NCBI GenBank assembly: GCA_017403065.1
Contig: JAFQOT010000004.1
Location: forward strand, 1 to 64,000
Length of the DNA: 64,000 nt
DNA from: Clostridia bacterium
Lineage (GTDB): Bacteria > Bacillota > Clostridia > Oscillospirales > Acutalibacteraceae
Direction of reading: 5' to 3'
A program made the position numbers and the translations under genes. Below, piece by piece: positions 41,626-51,645 of this stretch; the stretch's first letter is position 1, and the number at the start of each line of letters is the position of its first letter. The notes beneath the pieces were generated by a model. The model was not told where the DNA came from and searched no databases. It saw only the letters and a list, made by a program, of their open reading frames with translations.

Positions 41626-41877
41626 TCATTGAGATGAATCCAAGTATCCGTAGTTGTATTTTTCTTGTTTTTCTATATGTTGAATTCTGCGGTTAATATT
41701 GCTTATTTTTTCTTCTAAAACAGGAATTTTAGAGGAAATTACATTCTGGCTGTCGACCTTTTTTTCCAACTGTTCAAGTCGGTACTGAGTCAATTTACTT
41801 GAGGCGATAATGCCCCCTGCCGTACCCACAAGAGTGCCTAAAAAAGAAATTATTGCCACTACCACTGTGCTTTCCAT
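41626..41877 (-). CDS. Phage holin/XhlA-like small membrane protein
   Basis: An 83-residue protein with one N-terminal hydrophobic segment (VVVAIISFLGTLVGTAGGIIAS) followed by a coiled-coil-like heptad region. This resembles phage XhlA or holin-accessory proteins. It is the last gene of the phage module. No endolysin accompanies it, so a lysis role is uncertain; it may be a membrane anchor or structural part. Confidence 0.55.
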   Translation of the reverse strand: MESTVVVAIISFLGTLVGTAGGIIASSKLTQYRLEQLEKKVDSQNVISSKIPVLEEKISNINRRIQHIEKQEKYNYGYLDSSQ

Positions 41878-41881
41878 AAAA

Positions 41882-43903
41882 CTATTCCTCTAATTCAGAA
41901 TAAAAGACATCTATTTCGCCTACCCACAACGGCTTTTGACTTGATATTTTTAAAAATACCGAATTAAACTTTTTTAAAGAAGGAATGATTGAAAATTTCT
42001 TTAATTTATCTTGTGTGTTTTTATCAATAGTTGTCTTTACTGTTTTATCGCCGTTGCTTATTTCTACAACTGTTCTGCCTTTGAGATTTAATTGTAAATA
42101 TATTTTATCCAATCTCTTTCGGAAATTTACTCCCTTTGCAGAATACTCCTTTGTAACTAAAAAGCTGTTTACATCCTGTTCGTTTGCCCCTTCGTTAGTT
42201 ACTATACAATCTTTTATACCGTCAAGAGTTGCAGTATAACCTATATCACCGTTTTTGCAAATAATTATAGGCGACTTTTCACCCTCGAAGCCCCCTATAA
42301 TCTCTACTTCTTGAGGAAATTCCCAATAAAACCAGCCCTCGCCCTTATTCCAATTAAACCTATTTATAACAACGGCCTTGTTACCTAAAGCAAACATTAT
42401 ATATGCTCCGTAATTTATTGTAATTATATCTTGGCTCTCGGTTTTAGATATTTTATTTTGAATATTTGTGGATATATTGGCTATTCCCCTTTGAGTCAAC
42501 CCCGAAATCATATATACGTTACTGTCATTGCCCATAAAAACAGCTTCCGACAAATACTGGTTTACAGACCCCTTTTTCATACAACCTAAGCTGTTGCTTA
42601 TACAGTATGTACTGAAGCTATAGTCACCGTAAAAGATTTTGTCGTTATCCATTAAAAGTGAAATAGTGTTAATCGCCTTTGCATTTTGCACCTTAACAGA
42701 ATATATTTCATTTTCCTTAAAGGCTATGATTTTATCATCCTGTACCGCTAAATTGAGTACTTCAGAATTAGGATTTCCCACCTGTTGAATACTGTTTTCA
42801 GGAAAATAGAGTGGGTTTTGGTAGCTTGTGGTATAAATTTTATTTTTACCCCTTCCGCCTGAGAGAAAAATTCCTGAACCGTAGTTTACAGTACATTTAG
42901 ATGATACCACATTAGCAAAACTGTCAGCTATTTCTTTTCTTGCAAAAATTTTTATATTATTTTCCCTGTACTGATCCATTAAGGGCACCGAATAATCCCC
43001 TGCGGGACATATAAAATAAAAAATGCCCTTTTCTCTGTCAACATTAAAGGTTATATCCACATCAAAAAGCTTATTTGTGGCTGAGGTTTCGTTTGCAAGG
43101 ACTCTCCACTCAACATACTTGCTACTGCTGATATGCACCGTGCATATTACGGTAGTATTAGCAATCTTAGCATAGGGCAATCTAAAGCTGTTAGATGCCC
43201 CGTCAGACGAATAATAAGAATAAAAGCTTCCGTCAAGTAAATTCAAGGACTCTAAAAACGTAGGTTTTCCTGTGAAAACCTGTCCCGTTGACAGCATACT
43301 TTCATATTTATTACCTCTGCCGTTTATATAAACTATAGGGGTATAATAATCATAAATCGGTGTCCAGCCTGAAAAATCAGAATTAAGCTCATATATTTCG
43401 TATATCTTTTCTTGTGGATTTTCCATATTTTCTAAAGAAAGCAATGCAAATATTCCAAAGCCGTTCTCTGATTTTCCTTGATAAAAGGTTATATTAGAGG
43501 GTACAAAAAATGTATCGTCTGTTACTCTTGACCTTAATATATTGCCCGAATATATAGTCTCAGCCTCTTTTGAAATAAAGAATATATGGCTAAAGTGAAA
43601 GGATACTCCGTCACCACAGGACTTTACTAATATTCGGTAAGGCTTTTTATCAATAATCACCTGTGTATCTATATATTCATAGCTTATATTTTCCACAGAT
43701 TCATCATCAGTTTCAAATACATTATTATTAGCATTGATTGCGGGTCGTGTTTTATAAGCACCGTCTGAAAAATACATATTTAGCCCGTCTGCAATAAAGC
43801 CTTTATCAATATAAAGAGGTGAATTTGCTAAATCGAGGCCCTTGTTTTCAGGTATAATTTTAAAGCTCTTTTGTGTGTTTTCTTTTAAAGAGGGATACCT
43901 CAT
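41882..43903 (-). CDS. Phage structural protein, possibly P22 gp10-like head-closure protein
   Basis: A 673-residue, beta-rich protein that begins MRYPSLKENTQKSFKIIPE. Recurrent segments such as DDKIIAFKENEIYSVKV suggest a beta-propeller. Size, composition and position after a small connector gene resemble the DNA-stabilisation protein gp10 of P22-type podoviruses. No signal peptide. It abuts the connector stop and is followed 4 bp later by the small membrane protein gene. The gp10 comparison is a judgement by eye. Confidence 0.5.
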   Translation of the reverse strand: MRYPSLKENTQKSFKIIPENKGLDLANSPLYIDKGFIADGLNMYFSDGAYKTRPAINANNNVFETDDESVENISYEYIDTQVIIDKKPYRILVKSCGDGVSFHFSHIFFISKEAETIYSGNILRSRVTDDTFFVPSNITFYQGKSENGFGIFALLSLENMENPQEKIYEIYELNSDFSGWTPIYDYYTPIVYINGRGNKYESMLSTGQVFTGKPTFLESLNLLDGSFYSYYSSDGASNSFRLPYAKIANTTVICTVHISSSKYVEWRVLANETSATNKLFDVDITFNVDREKGIFYFICPAGDYSVPLMDQYRENNIKIFARKEIADSFANVVSSKCTVNYGSGIFLSGGRGKNKIYTTSYQNPLYFPENSIQQVGNPNSEVLNLAVQDDKIIAFKENEIYSVKVQNAKAINTISLLMDNDKIFYGDYSFSTYCISNSLGCMKKGSVNQYLSEAVFMGNDSNVYMISGLTQRGIANISTNIQNKISKTESQDIITINYGAYIMFALGNKAVVINRFNWNKGEGWFYWEFPQEVEIIGGFEGEKSPIIICKNGDIGYTATLDGIKDCIVTNEGANEQDVNSFLVTKEYSAKGVNFRKRLDKIYLQLNLKGRTVVEISNGDKTVKTTIDKNTQDKLKKFSIIPSLKKFNSVFLKISSQKPLWVGEIDVFYSELEE

Positions 43904-44257
43904 TTAAATACCCCCGCTTCTCACACTTGGTAAAACATCTTCTTTTTTTGCTTTTTGGGATAATACAGATGCTCTTTTAGCGTTATAAATTGCAGTAAAA
44001 ATCTGGTTTTTACCGCTATCGCCCTCTGTTAAAGCCAAAAGCATTGCGCACCCACAGCAAAGCGCATCAATTTTAGCCTCGTTAATATTTATTTTTTCTG
44101 AAAGGCTGAAAATCTGAGGAATTTTCAAATCCAAAGCTATTTGATTTATAATATCGGGCATACGGTTAATAAGGGTTTTATTATCCACCACCTCATTACT
44201 TTCGGGCGAATAACCCAAAAGCACCATACATCTTTTAAAAACGTCAAAACCTGTCAT
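43904..44257 (-). CDS. Phage head-completion connector protein (gp4/gp6-like)
   Basis: A 117-residue helical protein. Its pattern (TGFDVFKRCMVLLGYSPE, MPDIINQIALDL, ALCCGCAMLLAL) and its place after the portal fit head-tail connector or DNA-stabilisation proteins. It overlaps the portal gene by 4 bp (ATGA) and abuts the next gene, showing tight translational coupling. Confidence 0.6.
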   Translation of the reverse strand: MTGFDVFKRCMVLLGYSPESNEVVDNKTLINRMPDIINQIALDLKIPQIFSLSEKININEAKIDALCCGCAMLLALTEGDSGKNQIFTAIYNAKRASVLSQKAKKEDVLPSVRSGGI

Positions 44258-45834
44258 TGATTATCCTCCTTTTCTGCTAAAAGCCCGTCAATATCAGGTA
44301 TAACTCCCTTAGGCATTCTTATTAGTAACTGCTTACGGTCAATAATACCCTTTTCGTAAAGAGTCATTAAGGTAGATAAGCATTCCCTTTCGTTGTATTC
44401 TGTACTGTTACCTATATCAACCCTGGCAGATATAATTAAATTCTTATACCTTTCTCCGTTAAAGTTTATATATCCGCTTGAATCGGAAAGTTTGATCTCT
44501 CTTACACCGTAATAGGTTATCCAGAAATCTGCCCAAATACGTGATAATTCCTCAATAAAATTATAAAATCTTCGCTTAACCGATTTCAACGGCATTAAAG
44601 CCGCATCACGCATAGCCGCAAGAGCAGTAGCGTTTTCTGCCTTACTGTCACCTAATGCTACCTCATTAGCTCCGCTTTGGGTTAAAGTATTGTTTATTAA
44701 GGAATTTATGCTTTCGTCAAAATCCTTCATAAAAGACGGCGGCGATACATATTTCACAGCCCCCGCCACATCCTCATTGCTGCCAAACACCTTGATTATC
44801 TGGCCTGGGTCGTTAGTTATGTTTTCTGTAACGGTATCCCCGTTTACAAGCATTATAGGCATTCCGTTAGACATGGCCGACCATACGTTAGCAGTAATCA
44901 TTCGGTTTATGGCGATTTGATTTGGTATAAGATATGTGATTTCACTGTCGCCATAGGCTGAGTTGTTTCTGGTTTCCCAACAAAATACCGTTATAGGATA
45001 GAGAGATAAGCCTGTATCAAACTCCCCTCTGACAATAGCGTTTTCAGTGATTTTTATACCCTTAACAGTAAAGCTTCCGTCCGGTTTATAGCTTTTAAAA
45101 AGCTTAGTTATCAAATTGATTTTACCGTCCTCTGCCGACTGAGAAATCAAATCCAGAGTTTTGATATCTGCCCCATATAGCCTTGCCTGTCTTAAAACCT
45201 CGTCCGCTTCCTTGCGGCTTGAAATTATAATATATGGTTGATTTTGAACATTTTCACAGTATGGGTCACCAAAAACCACATCTTCAATATCCAAAACTTC
45301 ACAGCCTATGTCACCTTTTATATGAATTTTTTTATTTTTATCGGCAAAAAGTCCTGTAGGTACAGAAGAATCCCAATAGGTATACAGCACCGAGCTTCCT
45401 GTAATATAAGCGTTTTTAAGAGCCTTTTCCTTTAAAGCGTCAAGATTTACCCTTTCGGCAGTAGTATTAAAATAATCCCCTAAAACCGACATTAAAAGGT
45501 TTATATCCTCTCGCTCAAGACCTGTAGGATAGTTGTAATCATTTATTTCAGTATAAACGTTATTATCAAAATCTGTAGGTACTCCATCAGCAGAAAACTT
45601 AACCGATATAGGTGTATTTAAAACCTGTGACATTTTATAATCGCCGATTCTTTTGATTACATTGTGTCTTACAAGAGGTCGGTCATTACCGCATTTTGCC
45701 CCATGCCATTGGTCGCCTATATAAAATCTTTCGTTAATTTTGTTTTGCTCGAATAAGCCCTTATTACCTAAAGCTATTTTAAAATTTATCCCGTCAAGAT
45801 ACTCTTTGAAAACAATTTTCGGTAAATTTTTCAT
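44254..45834 (-). CDS. Phage portal protein
   Basis: A 526-residue portal candidate, the dodecameric ring through which DNA enters the head. It has the typical start ERFYIGDQWHGAKCGNDRP, NVIKRIGDYKMSQVLNTPI, a long central alpha/beta region, and TLTQSGANEVALGDSKAENATALAAMRDA near 400. The length is typical. It lies downstream of the capsid gene, whereas in most head modules the portal precedes it. A terminator-like hairpin separates it from the capsid gene. Confidence 0.8.
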   Translation of the reverse strand: MKNLPKIVFKEYLDGINFKIALGNKGLFEQNKINERFYIGDQWHGAKCGNDRPLVRHNVIKRIGDYKMSQVLNTPISVKFSADGVPTDFDNNVYTEINDYNYPTGLEREDINLLMSVLGDYFNTTAERVNLDALKEKALKNAYITGSSVLYTYWDSSVPTGLFADKNKKIHIKGDIGCEVLDIEDVVFGDPYCENVQNQPYIIISSRKEADEVLRQARLYGADIKTLDLISQSAEDGKINLITKLFKSYKPDGSFTVKGIKITENAIVRGEFDTGLSLYPITVFCWETRNNSAYGDSEITYLIPNQIAINRMITANVWSAMSNGMPIMLVNGDTVTENITNDPGQIIKVFGSNEDVAGAVKYVSPPSFMKDFDESINSLINNTLTQSGANEVALGDSKAENATALAAMRDAALMPLKSVKRRFYNFIEELSRIWADFWITYYGVREIKLSDSSGYINFNGERYKNLIISARVDIGNSTEYNERECLSTLMTLYEKGIIDRKQLLIRMPKGVIPDIDGLLAEKEDNQ

Positions 45835-45853
45835 ATTGTCACTCCTTTTTTAC

Positions 45854-45882
45854 AAAAAGCCCGAACAAAAAGCTCGGGCTTT
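45854..45882 (-). terminator. Terminator or attenuator between capsid and portal genes
   Basis: On the minus strand, AAAGCCCGA and TCGGGCTTT (9 bp) flank an 8-nt loop followed by TTTTTG. It would cut most transcripts after the capsid gene, giving more capsid than portal protein, as assembly needs (415 to 12 copies in a typical head). Confidence 0.8.
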
Positions 45883-45896
45883 AAGATTTGCTTTAA

Positions 45897-47069
45897 TTAA
45901 GCTACTGTAACAGTTGCAACCTTTGAATTTACGCCTGCGATTCCGTCAACGATTACCTTTACGAAATAATGGTAATTTCCGGCTTCAAGGTCAGTAGGAA
46001 TTGTTAAAGTATCTGTGTTGGCGCCTGCCACCTTCACAGGATAGCTTCCGTTTTCATTACAAGAGTACCACTGATATGTAAGCTCTCCTTCGCTTTGAGC
46101 AGCAACAGTTAAGCTGCCATCAATTTCACCCTCAAAAACCTCTGTGTCTTCAGGCTGAGCAGTAATGCTTACTGCAGGGGAAACCCAAGCCCAGATAGCA
46201 TCAAGACCGCTTTTGTTTACAAATACATCGTAGTAAATACGGTAATCAAATTTGTATGCATCAGCGTCTATATTCTGTTCAGGTGTGAAAATACGCATAT
46301 TTTCTGTCTTCTTAACAAGATGTGCGCTGCGCTTAGGACAAACAAGCATATAAATTTCACGTGCATTGTCACCTGGTATAAAACCGCCTGCGCCTTCGTT
46401 ATTAAATACATAAGCGGTTTTCATTCTTTCTGATACAACAGGAATAATTGCAACCCCGTTTATAGATTTAACCTTCAAGCTGATATCGCCCTGCTTAAAA
46501 TCTGAAACTGTAATCATTTTAGAAATTTCAGCAGAATTTTGAAGCGCTGCAAACATATAGCTGTCAACAAAGGCAACAAGCTCCTCGTCATAGCCTGCTA
46601 CAGACTGTACCTCATTAATAAGCTGGCATAAAGCCTCAAATGGCTTTTTAGTATCACCATCAACAGTATTTGAACGTGTAACAGCTAAGCCGGCAAGCTT
46701 TGAAAGTACATAAGCGTCACATTCAGGAACAACCTTAGTACGAACATATTCGCCTAAAATTTTGCCTGCAAGATTTGCAACGCCTGTCTCGGTCATATCC
46801 TCGCGGTCAATCTGCAAAGAGCGTGCGCGGTCCATTGCCATTGTATAAGAGGTGTTAGAAACTGTGATAGCGCCTCTTGTAAAGCCTGTATCACGGTCGT
46901 AATCTGCTAAGCCCTGAAAATCAACATCAGGAATAATTACAGTCTTAGCACCTACGAATTTTGTAGCAAGCGCATTATCTGCAAAGAAGCCTGTTGCGCT
47001 TTTTTGAGCAAACATTTTGTCAAGCTCGGTTGAATATTTTGTTGCGTTTTCAATAGAATTTATAGACAT
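45897..47069 (-). CDS. Major capsid protein with C-terminal Ig-like domain
   Basis: A 390-residue protein. Residues 1-300 have the HK97-fold coat pattern seen in P22-like and related phages (MAMDRARSLQIDREDMTETGV, LGEYVRTKVVPECDAYVL, FVDSYMFAALQ). Residues about 302-390 form an Ig-like surface domain (AQPEDTEVFEGE, LTYQWYSCNENGSYP, GNYHYFVKV). Surface Ig domains on heads are known for adhesion to cells or mucus. The gene is intact, with a strong ribosome site (AAAGGA) and a terminator after it. Confidence 0.82.
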   Translation of the reverse strand: MSINSIENATKYSTELDKMFAQKSATGFFADNALATKFVGAKTVIIPDVDFQGLADYDRDTGFTRGAITVSNTSYTMAMDRARSLQIDREDMTETGVANLAGKILGEYVRTKVVPECDAYVLSKLAGLAVTRSNTVDGDTKKPFEALCQLINEVQSVAGYDEELVAFVDSYMFAALQNSAEISKMITVSDFKQGDISLKVKSINGVAIIPVVSERMKTAYVFNNEGAGGFIPGDNAREIYMLVCPKRSAHLVKKTENMRIFTPEQNIDADAYKFDYRIYYDVFVNKSGLDAIWAWVSPAVSITAQPEDTEVFEGEIDGSLTVAAQSEGELTYQWYSCNENGSYPVKVAGANTDTLTIPTDLEAGNYHYFVKVIVDGIAGVNSKVATVTVA

Positions 47070-47086
47070 ATTATTTTATCCTTTCT

Positions 47087-47731
47087 TTATTTCCAAAGTC
47101 CCTTTAAAAACTGTTCTGTTTCGGGACTTATGCTCCCCACCTTATTTATTTGGGAGCCAATGCTTAAATTTTCTGCCTTTTCCTGACTTTTTTTAAGACT
47201 TTTTTCCCGCTTTTCCTGTAATGCTCTGTATCTTAAAAATTCGTCAAGCAAAAGGGTGCCTTTGATTTTAGAATTTTCTAAAACCTTTTGAGGTAAATCC
47301 TCTAAGGTTTTTATTTCGGGAAACAGATTTTTAAGCTCATCAAAGCCGTTTGAATTATTAAAATTCTCACTTTCAAGCCTTAAAATATGCTCCGCAAAAT
47401 CACTGTCGCCGCCGCATTTTTCAGTTAATTGCCTTTTTCTGTTTTCAATTTGCATTTCATTTAAATCAGATAAGAATTTAGGAACGCTTTTATTTTCCTT
47501 TTGGGCTAATTCCTTTAATTGCTCATAATCTTTTTGAATAACCTCATATTTCATTCCCTTTTGAGCTAAGGAAGCAGCCTCTTTAATGCCGAGATTTCTG
47601 ATTTCTTTGTTGTATTTAACCGGAATAATAATTTCGTTTTCCTCCGGTGTGGTATCCGTATTTTGAATTATTTCATCTTGTGTTTCAGAGCCTGGTACTT
47701 CTGAAACTTTAGTTTCGAAATTTTCTTTCAT
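47087..47731 (-). CDS. Phage scaffolding protein candidate
   Basis: A 214-residue acidic, strongly helical, Glu/Lys-rich protein with no globular core, directly before the capsid gene. This composition and position are the hallmarks of phage scaffold proteins. No maturation protease is present in the module, so the scaffold would have to leave intact, as in P22. Confidence 0.65.
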   Translation of the reverse strand: MKENFETKVSEVPGSETQDEIIQNTDTTPEENEIIIPVKYNKEIRNLGIKEAASLAQKGMKYEVIQKDYEQLKELAQKENKSVPKFLSDLNEMQIENRKRQLTEKCGGDSDFAEHILRLESENFNNSNGFDELKNLFPEIKTLEDLPQKVLENSKIKGTLLLDEFLRYRALQEKREKSLKKSQEKAENLSIGSQINKVGSISPETEQFLKGLWK

Positions 47732-47753
47732 AAATTATTTTCCTTTCCTTACT

Positions 47754-47942
47754 TTATGGCTGCTCACTGCCATCGTAGTTTAAAAAATTTTCGTATTCTC
47801 GCCTTAGCTTTTGTATCTCTGCCCTTTTTAACTTTTCTTTAGGCGATATAAAGATATTTTTTTCAAAGCTTCCCATTAAAAAGCCCACAAAAAAGGCTAA
47901 AATACAAAGCAAAATTATTATCAAATACATTAAGCGTCCCAT
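47754..47942 (-). CDS. Small single-span membrane protein in the phage module
   Basis: A 62-residue protein. An N-terminal hydrophobic helix (LIIILLCILAFFVGFLMGSF) is followed by a charged helical tail (KLKRAEIQKLRREYENFLN). It overlaps the terminase gene by 13 bp. A membrane protein between terminase and scaffold is unusual; its role is unknown. Confidence 0.6.
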   Translation of the reverse strand: MGRLMYLIIILLCILAFFVGFLMGSFEKNIFISPKEKLKRAEIQKLRREYENFLNYDGSEQP

Positions 47943-49234
47943 CCCTTATTTAAATCTTTACCGTATATTCCGCTTTGTGTTGATATTTCCCTTTGCACAG
48001 CTTGAGGATGAAAAAATTTCACATCAGCAAAGGCATATCTCAGCGCATCGCATAAATGGTTATCACAATCCTTTGGATACCGAAGCCCATTTTCTCCCGC
48101 TTTGTCATCATAAACATAGCTGGAAAGCTCCCGAATCATATTGGTGCAATCAGGATGCACTGTGATTTTATATTCATTGATTGCGGCAATTCCGTTTAAA
48201 ATGCTGTCCCTACCTTTAAGCGAGGGTGTAATTCTGCCAATTCCTAACCGTCTTAAATCGTCATTAGACTTAGGCTCAGCGCAGTCTGCGCGTATTCTTT
48301 CCTTGCTAAAGCCCAATTCCTTTATTTTTTCTGCAATATGACAGTTAAGCATTCGCTTCTGATAAAATTCCTTGTAAATGTAAATTTCCTTTTCAACAGG
48401 ATTAGCCATAAAAGCCACAAATGCGGTTGGGTCATTTGTGTAGCCGTAATCCAGACCGAAAAAGCTTTTCCATTTATATAAATCATTTTTAGGAATTTCT
48501 ATTTTTCCAACACTCCAATTTTCAAAAACCAGACCCTCTGAAATTCCCCAATTACCTAAGCCTGCAACCTCATATTTGCGGCGGTTAGTTTTTTTCATTC
48601 TTTCAAAAACCAAACGGTCGGTATCATCAAGAAATTCATTTATAAGATAGTTTGTTGAAAAAACATCTGTGTTTTCGGCTTTAGTGTCAAAAAAACGTTT
48701 TTTTAGCCAGTGTCCCTCACTCCAAGGATTAAAGGTAATAGTGGTTTGCTTGTAAAGCGGCGGCGGTATTTTTCCTCTCGGAACCGAAAGGTCAAGCTTA
48801 TCAAAGTCGGCTTCATTTGATATTTCAAATGCTTCTTCTATCCATACGAAATTTAAATATCCTTTAGATACTGTAGTAGAAGCCAGCTTCAGTACATCAT
48901 CAAAGCCTCTGAAAATAATCTTTTGTCCTGTAGGCTTATAAACCATTTCTAATGGCGATACCGTATTGTGCCAAAAGTGTTCAACACCTAATCTTTCCTG
49001 AGCCCACTTAAGCTGAGCATAGGTAGAATCTCTGTGTGTGTTCATAACCTGACGCACTACTAAAAGATTAGTTTCTTTTTCCTTCATAAGCCTGAAAATA
49101 AAATTCAGCGCCGTTGTAGCGGATTTTTTCGAAGCCTTTCCGCCCTTTAAAACACGGTAGCGTTTTTTAGAGCTCCAAAAGTCATCGTAACCTCCGCCTA
49201 CTATTTCCGACATCTTAATTTCCGATGTCGTCAA
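47930..49234 (-). CDS. Phage terminase large subunit (PBSX/XtmB type)
   Basis: A 434-residue packaging motor. The N-terminal ATPase has an atypical Walker A (KGGKASKKSA, about 28-37), Walker B FVWIEEAFE and the coupling motif TITFNPWSEGHW. The C-terminal RNase-H-fold nuclease keeps its acidic residues: Asp in FGLDYGYTNDPTAF, Asp/Glu in RADCAEPKSNDDLRRLG and Asp in DNHLCDALRYAF. All catalytic residues appear intact. It overlaps the small subunit by 20 bp. Confidence 0.92.
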   Translation of the reverse strand: MTTSEIKMSEIVGGGYDDFWSSKKRYRVLKGGKASKKSATTALNFIFRLMKEKETNLLVVRQVMNTHRDSTYAQLKWAQERLGVEHFWHNTVSPLEMVYKPTGQKIIFRGFDDVLKLASTTVSKGYLNFVWIEEAFEISNEADFDKLDLSVPRGKIPPPLYKQTTITFNPWSEGHWLKKRFFDTKAENTDVFSTNYLINEFLDDTDRLVFERMKKTNRRKYEVAGLGNWGISEGLVFENWSVGKIEIPKNDLYKWKSFFGLDYGYTNDPTAFVAFMANPVEKEIYIYKEFYQKRMLNCHIAEKIKELGFSKERIRADCAEPKSNDDLRRLGIGRITPSLKGRDSILNGIAAINEYKITVHPDCTNMIRELSSYVYDDKAGENGLRYPKDCDNHLCDALRYAFADVKFFHPQAVQREISTQSGIYGKDLNKGWDA

Positions 49235-49484
49235 TAATCATCACCGCCTTGCCACCGGTACGGGTTTCTTCATTTTTTTCACTTACGATAGAACGTAGCT
49301 CCTTTATAGCCGAAAGATCACCCGAAGCCGCTTTCTTGTAAAGAGCAATCATAACCGCAGTCTTTCTTGTGGGATTTTTAATTTCATATCCCTCTTCCTT
49401 AAGCGTTTGAACCTCTGCGTCCGATAGTCTTTCATTAAGAAGTGATTTCAAGGTTTTATAAAGTAGCTTGTCATTTTCTTTCAT
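49215..49484 (-). CDS. Phage terminase small subunit candidate
   Basis: An 89-residue protein directly before the terminase large subunit and overlapping it. The stretch NPTRKTAVMIALYKKAASGDLSAIKELRSIV resembles small terminase or helix-turn-helix packaging proteins. It is shorter than most small subunits. A hairpin at 49493-49512 could mask its ribosome site. Confidence 0.65.
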   Translation of the reverse strand: MKENDKLLYKTLKSLLNERLSDAEVQTLKEEGYEIKNPTRKTAVMIALYKKAASGDLSAIKELRSIVSEKNEETRTGGKAVMIIDDIGN

Positions 49485-49492
49485 AGTAAAAT

Positions 49493-49512
49493 ATCCTCCT
49501 CGGCAAGAGGAT
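49493..49512 (-). promoter_or_regulatory. Hairpin covering the ribosome site of the first phage gene
   Basis: On the minus strand, ATCCTC and GAGGAT pair across TTGCCGAG. The second arm contains the AGGAGG-type site of the small terminase gene. Translation of the first gene of the module could thus be kept low or be conditional. I see no good promoter just upstream. Confidence 0.45.
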
Positions 49513-49551
49513 AATACACCAATAAAAAGTGGACATTCACCGACATAAAGA

Positions 49552-49584
49552 AAACCGATAGACTCAAATTGAATCTATCGGTTT
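49552..49584 (-). terminator. Terminator between ABC exporter and phage module
   Basis: AAACCGATAGA and TCTATCGGTTT form an 11-bp stem with an 11-nt loop, right after the ABC exporter stop. It isolates the phage module from upstream transcription. Confidence 0.8.
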
Positions 49585-49588
49585 AAAA

Positions 49589-51256
49589 TTATTCTTTTAT
49601 TGTACTGATTTTTTTAGTATTTATATGTATTATCTTATCGCAAACCTTAAGGCTTGTATTTCTATGGGTTACAAATAGCACCGTTTTATCATTCATATCC
49701 TTTATGTTGGCTAAAACCTTTGTTTCGGTTGCTTCATCTAAAGCCGAGGTAGCTTCATCTAAGAGCAATATAGGAGCTTGGGTTAAAAGGGCTCTGGCAA
49801 TAGAAATTCTTTGTGCTTGTCCCTCTGAAAGACCGCCGCCTCTTTCCGAAATCACCGTATCAAAGCCATCAGGCATACTTTTTATTAAATCGTATATTTC
49901 GGCAGCTTTAGCAGCTTTAATAATGTCTTCCTCGCTCACATTATCATTACAAAGTGTGATGCTTTCTCTTATAGTGCCTGACAGCACCATATTTGATTGA
50001 GGTACATAAGCAAACAATCCTCTTAAAGAAGTGTCAAGCTTTATTCCGTCATTAACTGTAATTGCACCCTTTTCAAGCCGATAAAGCCCTAAAATCAGCT
50101 TGAAAATTGTACTTTTTCCACTTCCCGATTCACCTGTAATAGCAGTGATTTTCCCTTTTTCTGCCTCAAATGAACAATTTTCAAGAACTGTTTCCTTATT
50201 GTAAGCAAAGGTTATATCATCTACCCTCAAGCCCGAAAATTCACTCGCTATTTTTTCAAGCTTGTCATTGTCTACAGGAGGTAAATCGTCCTCCCCAGTT
50301 TCTATTTCCATCAGTCTTTCAGCCGATGCTATTGTAGAGTAATATCTAGGCATTATTCCAGATATATTCTGTAATGGGGCTCTCAGTTGAGAAATAAGCT
50401 GTAAAAATGCCATAAGGGTTCCATAGGTTATAAAGCCGCCCGCTATTTTGTTTGCGCCCCAAATTAAAATACAATAATATCCTATTGTGAAAAAATAATA
50501 AAGACTTAAATTGATAACGGTTGAAATCTTAGCCCTTTTTATTTTATATTTGTAGTTTTGGTTCATAATCTTTTCAAGCTTTGCAGAAAATGGCGCTTCG
50601 CTTACAAAGGTTTTAATAACTACTATATTTTCAATACACTCCTGTAAAAAAGACCTTGCTTCACCCTCTGTTTCCTGACATTTTTTATGCAAGGCTTTAT
50701 ATCTTTTGTTTATCATTCTTCCCACAGCAGGAACCAATACTCCAAGCACAAGAATAATAATAGCTATCTGCCAGTTAAGAACAATAAGGGCAGAAACCCC
50801 GCCGATTATTCTTGCAACCATTGAAGTAATGCTTGGAATCATACCAACTATACCGTTTACCACAACATCGGTATCAGAAGTAAATCTGTTTAATAAATCC
50901 CCTGAATGATAATTTGAAATCTTAGAATATTTTTTTCTTGAAACAAGAGAAAACAGATAATTTCTTATAGATATCGTAAGCTTGGCATTTGTATATGTAT
51001 TTAAAAGATTATGGGCAAATAAAAGTACGATTTGCACAGCTATAACAATAAAGAGTAAAAGACTGGATGTTAAAAAGCTACCGTTGACGCTTGAGGTTGC
51101 AGTATCTAAAATATTTTTAGAAATCAGCGCTAATGCCACATAGCTTAAAGAATCAACCGCTGCTATACCCGACATAATGAAAATTAAGGGAAGATATTTT
51201 TTACTCCTTAAATAAATCCATAAAACTGCCTTTGTGTTGTTTTCCTTTTTATTCAA
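49589..51256 (-). CDS. ABC exporter, fused permease-ATPase
   Basis: A 555-residue half-transporter. Six membrane helices (about 15-300) are followed by an ABC domain with Walker A TGESGSGKSTIF, Q-loop, signature LSEGQAQRISIARAL, Walker B ILLLDEATSALD and H-loop FVTHR. No peptidase C39 domain is present, so any leader would need another protease. It overlaps the PqqD-like gene by 8 bp, which links it to peptide export. Confidence 0.92.
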   Translation of the reverse strand: MNKKENNTKAVLWIYLRSKKYLPLIFIMSGIAAVDSLSYVALALISKNILDTATSSVNGSFLTSSLLLFIVIAVQIVLLFAHNLLNTYTNAKLTISIRNYLFSLVSRKKYSKISNYHSGDLLNRFTSDTDVVVNGIVGMIPSITSMVARIIGGVSALIVLNWQIAIIILVLGVLVPAVGRMINKRYKALHKKCQETEGEARSFLQECIENIVVIKTFVSEAPFSAKLEKIMNQNYKYKIKRAKISTVINLSLYYFFTIGYYCILIWGANKIAGGFITYGTLMAFLQLISQLRAPLQNISGIMPRYYSTIASAERLMEIETGEDDLPPVDNDKLEKIASEFSGLRVDDITFAYNKETVLENCSFEAEKGKITAITGESGSGKSTIFKLILGLYRLEKGAITVNDGIKLDTSLRGLFAYVPQSNMVLSGTIRESITLCNDNVSEEDIIKAAKAAEIYDLIKSMPDGFDTVISERGGGLSEGQAQRISIARALLTQAPILLLDEATSALDEATETKVLANIKDMNDKTVLFVTHRNTSLKVCDKIIHINTKKISTIKE

Positions 51257-51515
51257 TTATTCCATTCTCCCTCATAGTTCTGATAAAAACATCTATATCT
51301 CCAAGAGCTAAAACGGTTGAAATATTAAAGTTATCCAAAACCGCTTCCAACATTTCGGTTTTAGTAACCTCTTTTTCCTTTAAAAGCCTCCACAAAAAAG
51401 CGGCTGTTTCGGTTAAAACAATGTAACTTCCTGATTGCATACCGTTTTTTTCTTTTTTAATAACAACATTTTGACCGCTACGGTTTACAAGCTCAAAACC
51501 TTCTTTAATTTTCAA
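51249..51515 (-). CDS. PqqD-family protein (stand-alone RiPP recognition element)
   Basis: An 88-residue protein with the PqqD winged-helix pattern. An N-terminal beta-hairpin (FELVNRSGQNVVIKKE) is followed by LTETAAFLWRLLKE, a helix, NISTVLALGDIDVFIRTMRENGI and stop. Known PqqD-like domains bind leader peptides of ribosomally made, modified peptides. The TTG at 51515 follows AGAGGTG by six bases; a GTG at 51524 is possible. The gene overlaps the ABC exporter. No radical-SAM enzyme or precursor is visible nearby. Confidence 0.82.
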   Translation of the reverse strand: MKIKEGFELVNRSGQNVVIKKEKNGMQSGSYIVLTETAAFLWRLLKEKEVTKTEMLEAVLDNFNISTVLALGDIDVFIRTMRENGIIE

Positions 51516-51645
51516 CCTTAACACCTCTATTTAAAAGTTAATAAATTATAAATTATTATACAATAAAGTAAAAAATATTGCAATACCTATAGATTTTGTT
51601 GTATAATACAAATAAATTATATTACATATTCTCAGGAGTTATGAC

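What the first reader, a model, noticed from the sequence alone, without database searches (positions are those of the whole stretch)
41626..49484. Compact intact phage-head module without tail, lysis, replication or integrase genes
Nine tightly packed genes encode terminase small and large subunits, scaffold, capsid with Ig domain, portal, connector, a large beta-rich structural protein and two small membrane proteins. All frames are intact and the terminase keeps its catalytic residues. There is no integrase, repressor, tail or endolysin. The set is flanked by a terminator and by the copA promoter. Random decay would not leave only the DNA-packaging head intact. It may be a domesticated particle, a gene-transfer-agent-like system or a satellite.
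Basis: partly seen in the sequence, partly recalled or inferred. Interest (0 to 1): 0.78.

Follow-up and report, generated by a model that had tools for sequence, protein, structure and literature searches.

The report
Domesticated phage particle, GTA-like, genus-wide
A tiny-genomed gut bacterium and most of its genus have inherited, instead of a virus, a set of phage genes for making a small DNA-packing particle, kept intact by selection and apparently switched on together with fibre, lysis and toxin genes scattered round the chromosome, which points to a built-in machine for moving DNA (or toxins) between cells.

Summary
The nine genes at 41626-49484 are real, intact and co-oriented. Two readings change. 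First, a tail is present: the 117-aa and 673-aa proteins fold like the P22-type adaptor and the podophage tail nozzle, so the operon encodes a nearly complete short-tailed particle core. Second, this is not a local oddity: the colinear operon occurs in 55 of 70 species genomes of the genus, almost always once. Its tree follows the species tree (24 of 33 splits; shuffles average 0.24), and its core genes have dN/dS 0.01-0.09, like rpoB. Integrase-bearing relatives also exist as ordinary prophages; compared with them the cassette's TerS has lost its DNA-binding domain.

A box, TGTCGGTGAATGTC plus a -10, precedes TerS in nearly all cassettes. Across the genus the same box precedes unlinked tail fibres, holin/endolysin genes and MuF/barnase-barstar toxin genes. 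A CI-like repressor, a zinc-ribbon protein and a phage-type late activator beside dinB co-occur with the cassette (P about 2e-9, not phylogenetically corrected). The window genome has this switch and tail fibres on other contigs.

Best reading: a decentralised, podovirus-type gene-transfer-agent-like element. Closest known is FpGTA of Faecalibacterium (2026). DNA packaging and transfer are not shown.

The parts
49552..49584 (-). intrinsic terminator of the upstream ABC gene, insulating the cassette
   Evidence: 15-bp stem followed by T tract
49532..49545 (-). promoter box TGTCGGTGAATGTC (direct repeat TGTC-N6-TGTC)
   Evidence: found with at most 2 mismatches upstream of TerS in 45 of 48 cassettes; the only exact copy in the window genome
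49511..49516 (-). -10 hexamer TATTAT, 15 nt after the box
   Evidence: 14-15 nt spacing in 39 of 45 cassettes
49215..49484 (-). g1: small terminase-like protein (89 aa) without HTH domain
   Evidence: no HTH in the window copy or 6 other cassettes, HTH_Tnp_1_2 at 1e-17 to 1e-19 in 4 of 4 prophage TerS; profile match only to their C-terminal 40 columns (E 3.5e-4)
47930..49234 (-). g2: large terminase, ATPase and nuclease residues intact
   Evidence: dN/dS 0.03-0.05 in four close species pairs
47754..47942 (-). g3: 62-aa protein with N-terminal membrane segment, conserved position after TerL
   Evidence: cassette position also held by membrane proteins in prophages
47087..47731 (-). g4: scaffold (by position and composition; conserved C-terminus)
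   Evidence: no database hit for function
45897..47069 (-). g5: major capsid protein with C-terminal Ig domain
   Evidence: phrog_422 E 3e-74; Ig_3; dN/dS 0.01-0.07 in close pairs
44254..45834 (-). g6: portal
   Evidence: phrog_156 E 4e-25; tree separates it from prophage portals
43904..44257 (-). g7: head-tail adaptor, P22 gp4 / Sf6 gp7-like fold
   Evidence: TM 0.63-0.68, probability 0.94-1.0 for the best four hits, E 0.15-0.6
41882..43903 (-). g8: short-tail nozzle (T7 gp12 / P22 gp10-like)
   Evidence: pLDDT 92; best 30 PDB hits are phage tail or portal-tail proteins, nearly all of short-tailed phages
41626..41877 (-). g9: small membrane/coiled-coil protein, holin-like, lysis-associated
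   Evidence: phrog_1863; same family as the amidase-linked protein of L238
41563..41592 (-). hairpin plus T tract after the cassette, before copA

Best explanation
The operon is the structural and packaging core of a host-owned, podovirus-type, gene-transfer-agent-like element that this genus inherits vertically. When a CI-like repressor is inactivated, an unlinked phage-type late activator switches on a shared promoter box. The box drives the head/packaging/short-tail operon and, in many species, unlinked tail-fibre, holin/endolysin and toxin-immunity genes. The particle would fill with host DNA non-specifically, because TerS has lost its DNA-recognition domain, and would be released by lysis. 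Shown by sequence here: parts, conservation, selection, shared box, co-occurrence of the switch. Inferred: that the activator binds the box, that the repressor controls the activator, that the particle forms, that it packages host DNA and that it delivers it.
For: Single-copy colinear operon in 55 of 70 genus genomes, intact frames. Recurring host neighbourhoods in subclades. Cassette tree matches rpoB tree: 24/33 splits against a shuffle mean of 0.24 and maximum of 2; distance r 0.87. dN/dS of TerL, MCP and portal 0.007-0.085 in four close pairs, rpoB 0.02-0.06. Intact related prophages with integrase form a separate clade. Cassette TerS lacks the HTH of phage TerS. Box upstream of TerS in 45/48 cassettes. 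56 box-plus--10 sites in the genus against 0 for the reversed control; half lie outside the cassette, mostly at fibre, lysis or toxin genes. A near-identical late promoter (GTCAGTGAATGTC) lies between activator and TerS in some related prophages. Repressor/zinc-ribbon/activator locus beside dinB in 54 genomes, co-occurring with the cassette (51/4/3/12, P 6e-8; 47/2/1/11, P 2e-9 at 80% completeness or more). Window genome has the switch (C10) and tail fibres (C14) unlinked. FpGTA, of the same architecture, makes particles with host DNA (PMC12946183).
Against: No particle, packaging or transfer data for this genus. All genomes are draft assemblies, the named ones MAGs. The box is absent upstream of the tail-fibre gene in the window genome, and no endolysin was located there. 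Toxin genes under the box fit a killing role as well as gene transfer. The Fisher tests treat related species as independent. The activator-box link rests on co-occurrence and on the prophage arrangement.
Confidence: 0.74

Rival explanations
1. The particle is mainly a weapon: a phage-derived, tail-nozzle particle that carries or accompanies MuF-linked RNase toxins into competitors, with immunity proteins protecting the makers. DNA packaging is incidental, as in PBSX of Bacillus subtilis.
For: Eight box-driven loci in the genus encode Cys-rich, MuF-type proteins with toxin ends and neighbouring small immunity-like proteins, three of them barnase-like with barstar. MuF domains belong to virion packaging modules (PMC5576092). 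The nozzle is the fastest-evolving structural gene in three of four close pairs.
Against: Terminase ATPase and nuclease residues and portal are under as strong a constraint as the capsid. Toxin loci are patchy and none was found under the box in the window genome.
Confidence: 0.13
2. Ordinary prophages or remnants of one phage family that integrate repeatedly; the shared order reflects phage descent, not host inheritance.
For: Full prophages of the same family exist in the genus, with integrase, repressor and large polyvalent proteins. Some MAGs hold both.
Against: Congruence with the species tree, shared host flanks, no integrase at cassettes, separate portal clade, distinct TerS, and no widespread decay.
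Confidence: 0.05
3. A phage satellite or a defence module that poisons incoming phages of the same family with its own capsid parts.
For: Capsid, scaffold and portal are related to those of co-resident prophages (capsids 45-66% identical), so interference is conceivable.
Against: No integrase, attachment site, primase or capsid-redirecting gene; the terminase is kept; fibre and lysis genes share its promoter.
Confidence: 0.05
4. A host-owned particle whose packaging has been lost or repurposed for storage or signalling.
For: Nothing direct; TerS divergence would allow loss of packaging.
Against: TerL catalytic residues are invariant.
Confidence: 0.03

Closest known systems
FpGTA of Faecalibacterium (Borodovich et al. 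2026, PMC12946183)
   Same: Gut Clostridia; about 10-kb operon with TerS lacking an obvious DNA-binding domain, TerL, portal, scaffold and capsid; podovirus-like; second unlinked operon with tail fibre, receptor-binding protein, holin and endolysin; present in all 12 Faecalibacterium genomes examined
   Different: Sequence homology could not be tested with named Faecalibacterium sequences. That paper's text has no mention of promoter, repressor, activator, regulator or toxin; here a shared promoter box, an unlinked repressor/activator switch beside dinB, box-driven MuF/RNase toxins and a GHL10 lipoprotein gene are seen. FpGTA has particles and packaged DNA shown; this has not.
Caulobacter CcGTA / Rhodobacter RcGTA
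   Same: Vertically inherited phage-derived cluster, unlinked peripheral genes, repressor controlling an activator pair that acts on many promoters (PMC11150451)
   Different: Siphovirus-like (own knowledge), alphaproteobacterial, unrelated regulators (RogA, GafY/GafZ)
PBSX of Bacillus subtilis
   Same: Domesticated Gram-positive phage particle that packages host DNA
   Different: Long-tailed (own knowledge), kills rather than injects DNA (as summarised in PMC12946183); one locus
P22/T7-like podophages
   Same: Adaptor and nozzle folds, portal, HK97-type capsid
   Different: No replication, integration or ejection genes in the cassette
MuF polymorphic toxins of temperate Firmicutes phages (PMC5576092)
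   Same: Phage_Mu_F domain fused to a toxin with adjacent immunity
   Different: Reported as exclusively in phages and prophages; here stand-alone chromosomal loci under the cassette's promoter box

Membership tests
Gene transfer agent | Phage-derived structural and terminase genes fixed in the host lineage, inherited vertically | tested here: met
Gene transfer agent | Genes maintained by selection, not decaying | tested here: met
   dN/dS and intact frames; one deletion remnant (G029)
Gene transfer agent | No integrase, excision or replication genes with the cluster | tested here: met
Gene transfer agent | TerS without specific DNA recognition | tested here: met
   (sequence level only)
Gene transfer agent | Host-encoded regulation and unlinked peripheral genes | tested here: met
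   regulatory action inferred
Gene transfer agent | Particles package random host DNA | not testable with these tools
   needs particle DNA sequencing
Gene transfer agent | Particles deliver DNA to recipients | not testable with these tools
   needs transfer assay
FpGTA | Sequence homology of capsid, portal and nozzle to the Faecalibacterium operon | not tested
   named Faecalibacterium sequences could not be fetched; nozzle profile finds distant relatives in several other families of the order
Short-tailed (podovirus-type) particle | Portal, adaptor and nozzle | tested here: met
   adaptor by fold shape, weak E-value
Complete temperate prophage | Integrase, repressor, replication, ejection proteins at the locus | tested here: not met
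Capsid-forming PICI satellite | Integrase, AlpA-type regulator, primase, redirecting genes, mobile insertion | tested here: not met
MuF polymorphic toxin (unlinked loci of relatives) | MuF domain plus toxin domain plus immunity gene | tested here: met
   Phage_Mu_F 1e-7, Ribonuclease 2e-11, Barstar 2e-20 in L220; the DUF6883 type lacks a significant MuF hit

The most novel reading that the evidence does not exclude
A dispersed, genus-wide, podovirus-type gene-transfer agent in which one promoter box couples particle production and lysis to particle-borne MuF nuclease toxins with immunity, so that the same particle both moves DNA among relatives and kills cells lacking the immunity gene. Box copies near dnaA in six species would additionally tie it to replication.
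Probability: 0.22. Interest if true: 0.93.

Novelty: new variant of a known kind. Interest (0 to 1): 0.82.

Why it matters
Few gene-transfer agents are known outside Alphaproteobacteria, and the podovirus type was first reported in 2026 from one genus. This gives a second gut genus with a deep (more than 50 species), vertically inherited set, and names a candidate switch, a promoter and the unlinked parts. That makes regulation, toxin coupling and host benefit directly testable, and it persists in a genome of only 1.24 Mb, where useless DNA should be lost.

Tried and rejected
Prophage remnant, satellite and independent insertions: rejected on tree congruence, flanks, dN/dS and absence of mobility genes. 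Direct search for regulon members in the window genome by the box: only the TerS site is exact; the three other hits with up to 2 mismatches fall inside coding genes (recF, his operon, ruvB) and are taken as chance. Solved-structure search by sequence profile for nozzle and adaptor: nothing, so fold comparison was used. Capsid search in phage records: best 36%. Viral contigs with close Ig-capsids are 5-6 kb pieces, whose origin was not resolved; the 31-35 kb ones are 48-58% identical phages. Two family searches failed on wrong coordinates and one more; they were repeated correctly. The nozzle and capsid census in the order shows distant relatives in other families but cannot name Faecalibacterium. 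Box hits at G011:C40, G091:C23 and the G023/G032 C39 pair were judged likely chance or unrelated; G017:C270 was not examined.
Full report
Observation. The nine ORFs exist as described on the minus strand, 41626-49484. TerL, portal and an Ig-bearing capsid are supported by profile searches. The 673-aa protein was modelled at pLDDT 92 from an alignment of 54 relatives. Its best 30 PDB matches are phage tail or portal-tail proteins, nearly all from short-tailed phages: Pa223 2.7e-19, T7 gp12 5e-15, P22 gp10 1e-13. The 117-aa protein has the P22 gp4 / Sf6 gp7 adaptor shape (TM 0.63-0.68, weak E-values of 0.15-1, all the best hits being adaptors or tail components). So the operon runs TerS, TerL, small membrane protein, scaffold, capsid, portal, adaptor, nozzle, small holin-like protein. 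'No tail' was wrong.

Distribution. The window lies in a 1.24-Mb, 99.6% complete draft genome with one TerL. In the first 36 congeneric genomes 32 have it, mostly 66-82% identical. In all 70 held genomes of the genus, 63 have a related capsid, of which 55 belong to the colinear cassette. Named records that match are Oscillospiraceae or Clostridia MAGs from ruminants and horse. Among 394 genomes drawn from the order, close Ig-capsids occur only in this genus; one other genus of the same family has an analogous cassette with a 48% capsid, a different TerL, an NlpC/P60-like gene, g9 and a holin-like gene.

Inheritance and selection. Cassette neighbours recur within subclades: the nnrD/pqqD/ABC region of the window, a UPF0210/ACT-domain region in about 13 genomes, the ribosomal alpha operon, and glgB/glgC-type genes. 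For 36 complete sets the TerL+capsid+portal tree shares 24 of 33 splits with rpoB (shuffles: mean 0.24, maximum 2); the distance correlation is 0.87 and only two well-supported splits conflict. The genomes without the cassette are mostly one clade of nine plus a few single species. dN/dS in four close pairs is 0.03-0.05 for TerL, 0.01-0.07 for capsid, 0.03-0.09 for portal, and 0.1-0.2 for nozzle and GHL10; rpoB is 0.02-0.06.

Relation to live phages. Related prophages occur in the genus. They have a different TerS, often a non-Ig capsid, and after the nozzle a 250-390-aa protein and a giant polyvalent protein. At least two contigs also carry an integrase, repressor and fibres, and fibre and endolysin genes follow in a third. 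Their portals form a separate clade with support 1.0. Their TerS has an HTH domain (4 of 4, about 1e-17 to 1e-19); cassette TerS does not (window copy plus 6 of 6), and profile alignment joins only the C-terminal region.

Promoter box. Upstream of TerS in 45 of 48 cassettes lies TGTCGGTGAATGTC or a near copy, followed 14-15 nt later by a TATAAT-like hexamer in 39. In the window it is at 49532-49545 with TATTAT at 49511-49516. The pattern with -10 occurs at 56 distinct places in 38 of 70 genomes; the reversed control occurs nowhere. My sorting of the 56 sites: 26 at cassettes, 6 at tail-fibre genes (three followed by holin and amidase genes), 4 at lysis genes, 8 at toxin-immunity genes, 6 near dnaA, 6 other. 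Independently, fibre genes found by profile occur in 47 of 70 genomes; of the 22 loci first parsed 13 have a strong box, 12 of them within about 80 nt of the fibre start, where the null 99th percentile score is 9.4 and these score 17.7-26.7. In the prophages of the cassette-less clade the related sequence GTCAGTGAATGTC lies between a late activator gene and TerS, so the box is probably a captured phage late promoter.

Switch. A profile of that activator reached a 105-aa protein in the window genome at E 0.01. It sits with a zinc-ribbon protein and a divergent CI-like repressor next to dinB. The zinc-ribbon gene is found in 54 genomes at E below 1e-14; in most of the 30 loci examined the activator gene follows it, and often the repressor lies on its other side, sometimes with an ImmA-type protease. 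Profiles support the identities: HTH_26, phrog_36/248 late activators, Sigma70_r4-like, Peptidase_M78. Presence agrees with the cassette in 63 of 70 genomes (P 6e-8; at 80% completeness or more 58 of 61, P 2e-9). The test ignores phylogeny. In the window genome the tail fibres are on contig 14 without a recognisable box, and no endolysin was located.

Interpretation. The parts match a gene-transfer agent more closely than any other kind: vertical host element, intact terminase, TerS without DNA recognition, podovirus-type particle, dispersed fibre and lysis genes, host-held repressor/activator. FpGTA in Faecalibacterium is the same kind and has been shown to make particles of about 40 nm with about 9 kb of host DNA (PMC12946183). 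What is added here is the second genus, the depth of inheritance, the promoter box, the switch and the toxin loci. Caulobacter's RogA-GafYZ control of about 18 GTA-related promoters (PMC11150451) is a functional parallel with unrelated proteins. The toxins leave a weapon role open; both may hold. Particle formation, packaging and transfer remain untested.

Noticed in passing
L239 (G006:C4), L237 (G085:C13), L217, L229, L230, L297: The same promoter box lies 166-177 bp upstream of dnaA in two species, and about 1.1 kb upstream of it, inside the start of a spoIIP-like gene, in four others. Unexplained.
   Followed up: partly
L050, L058, L100, L055: In the clade without the cassette, a compact related prophage with repressor and activator sits beside the same sugar-kinase gene in four species; possibly another domesticated element or a preferred insertion site.
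   Followed up: partly
L031-L056 between g8 and g9: Most relatives carry a lipoprotein-like GHL10 glycosyl-hydrolase gene inside the cassette; the window and a few related species lack it.
   Followed up: partly
L056 (G029): A cassette reduced by internal deletion to TerS, truncated TerL and partial GHL10, while regulatory and fibre genes remain.
   Followed up: no
L291 (G403:C12): A different genus of the same family has an analogous cassette with a replaced large terminase and its own lysis-type genes, inside host genes.
   Followed up: partly
L050:10393-13821, L098:1-4824: The related prophages encode giant polyvalent proteins with metalloprotease, ADP-ribosyltransferase or nuclease-like ends after or near the capsid genes.
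   Followed up: partly
window 49589-51524: A PqqD-like protein and an ABC exporter-like protein overlap next to the cassette and are conserved with it in one subclade; a peptide-export pair without visible precursor.
   Followed up: no
L234 (G088:C99): A box-preceded serine-protease-like gene directly after an amidase and holin-like pair.
   Followed up: no
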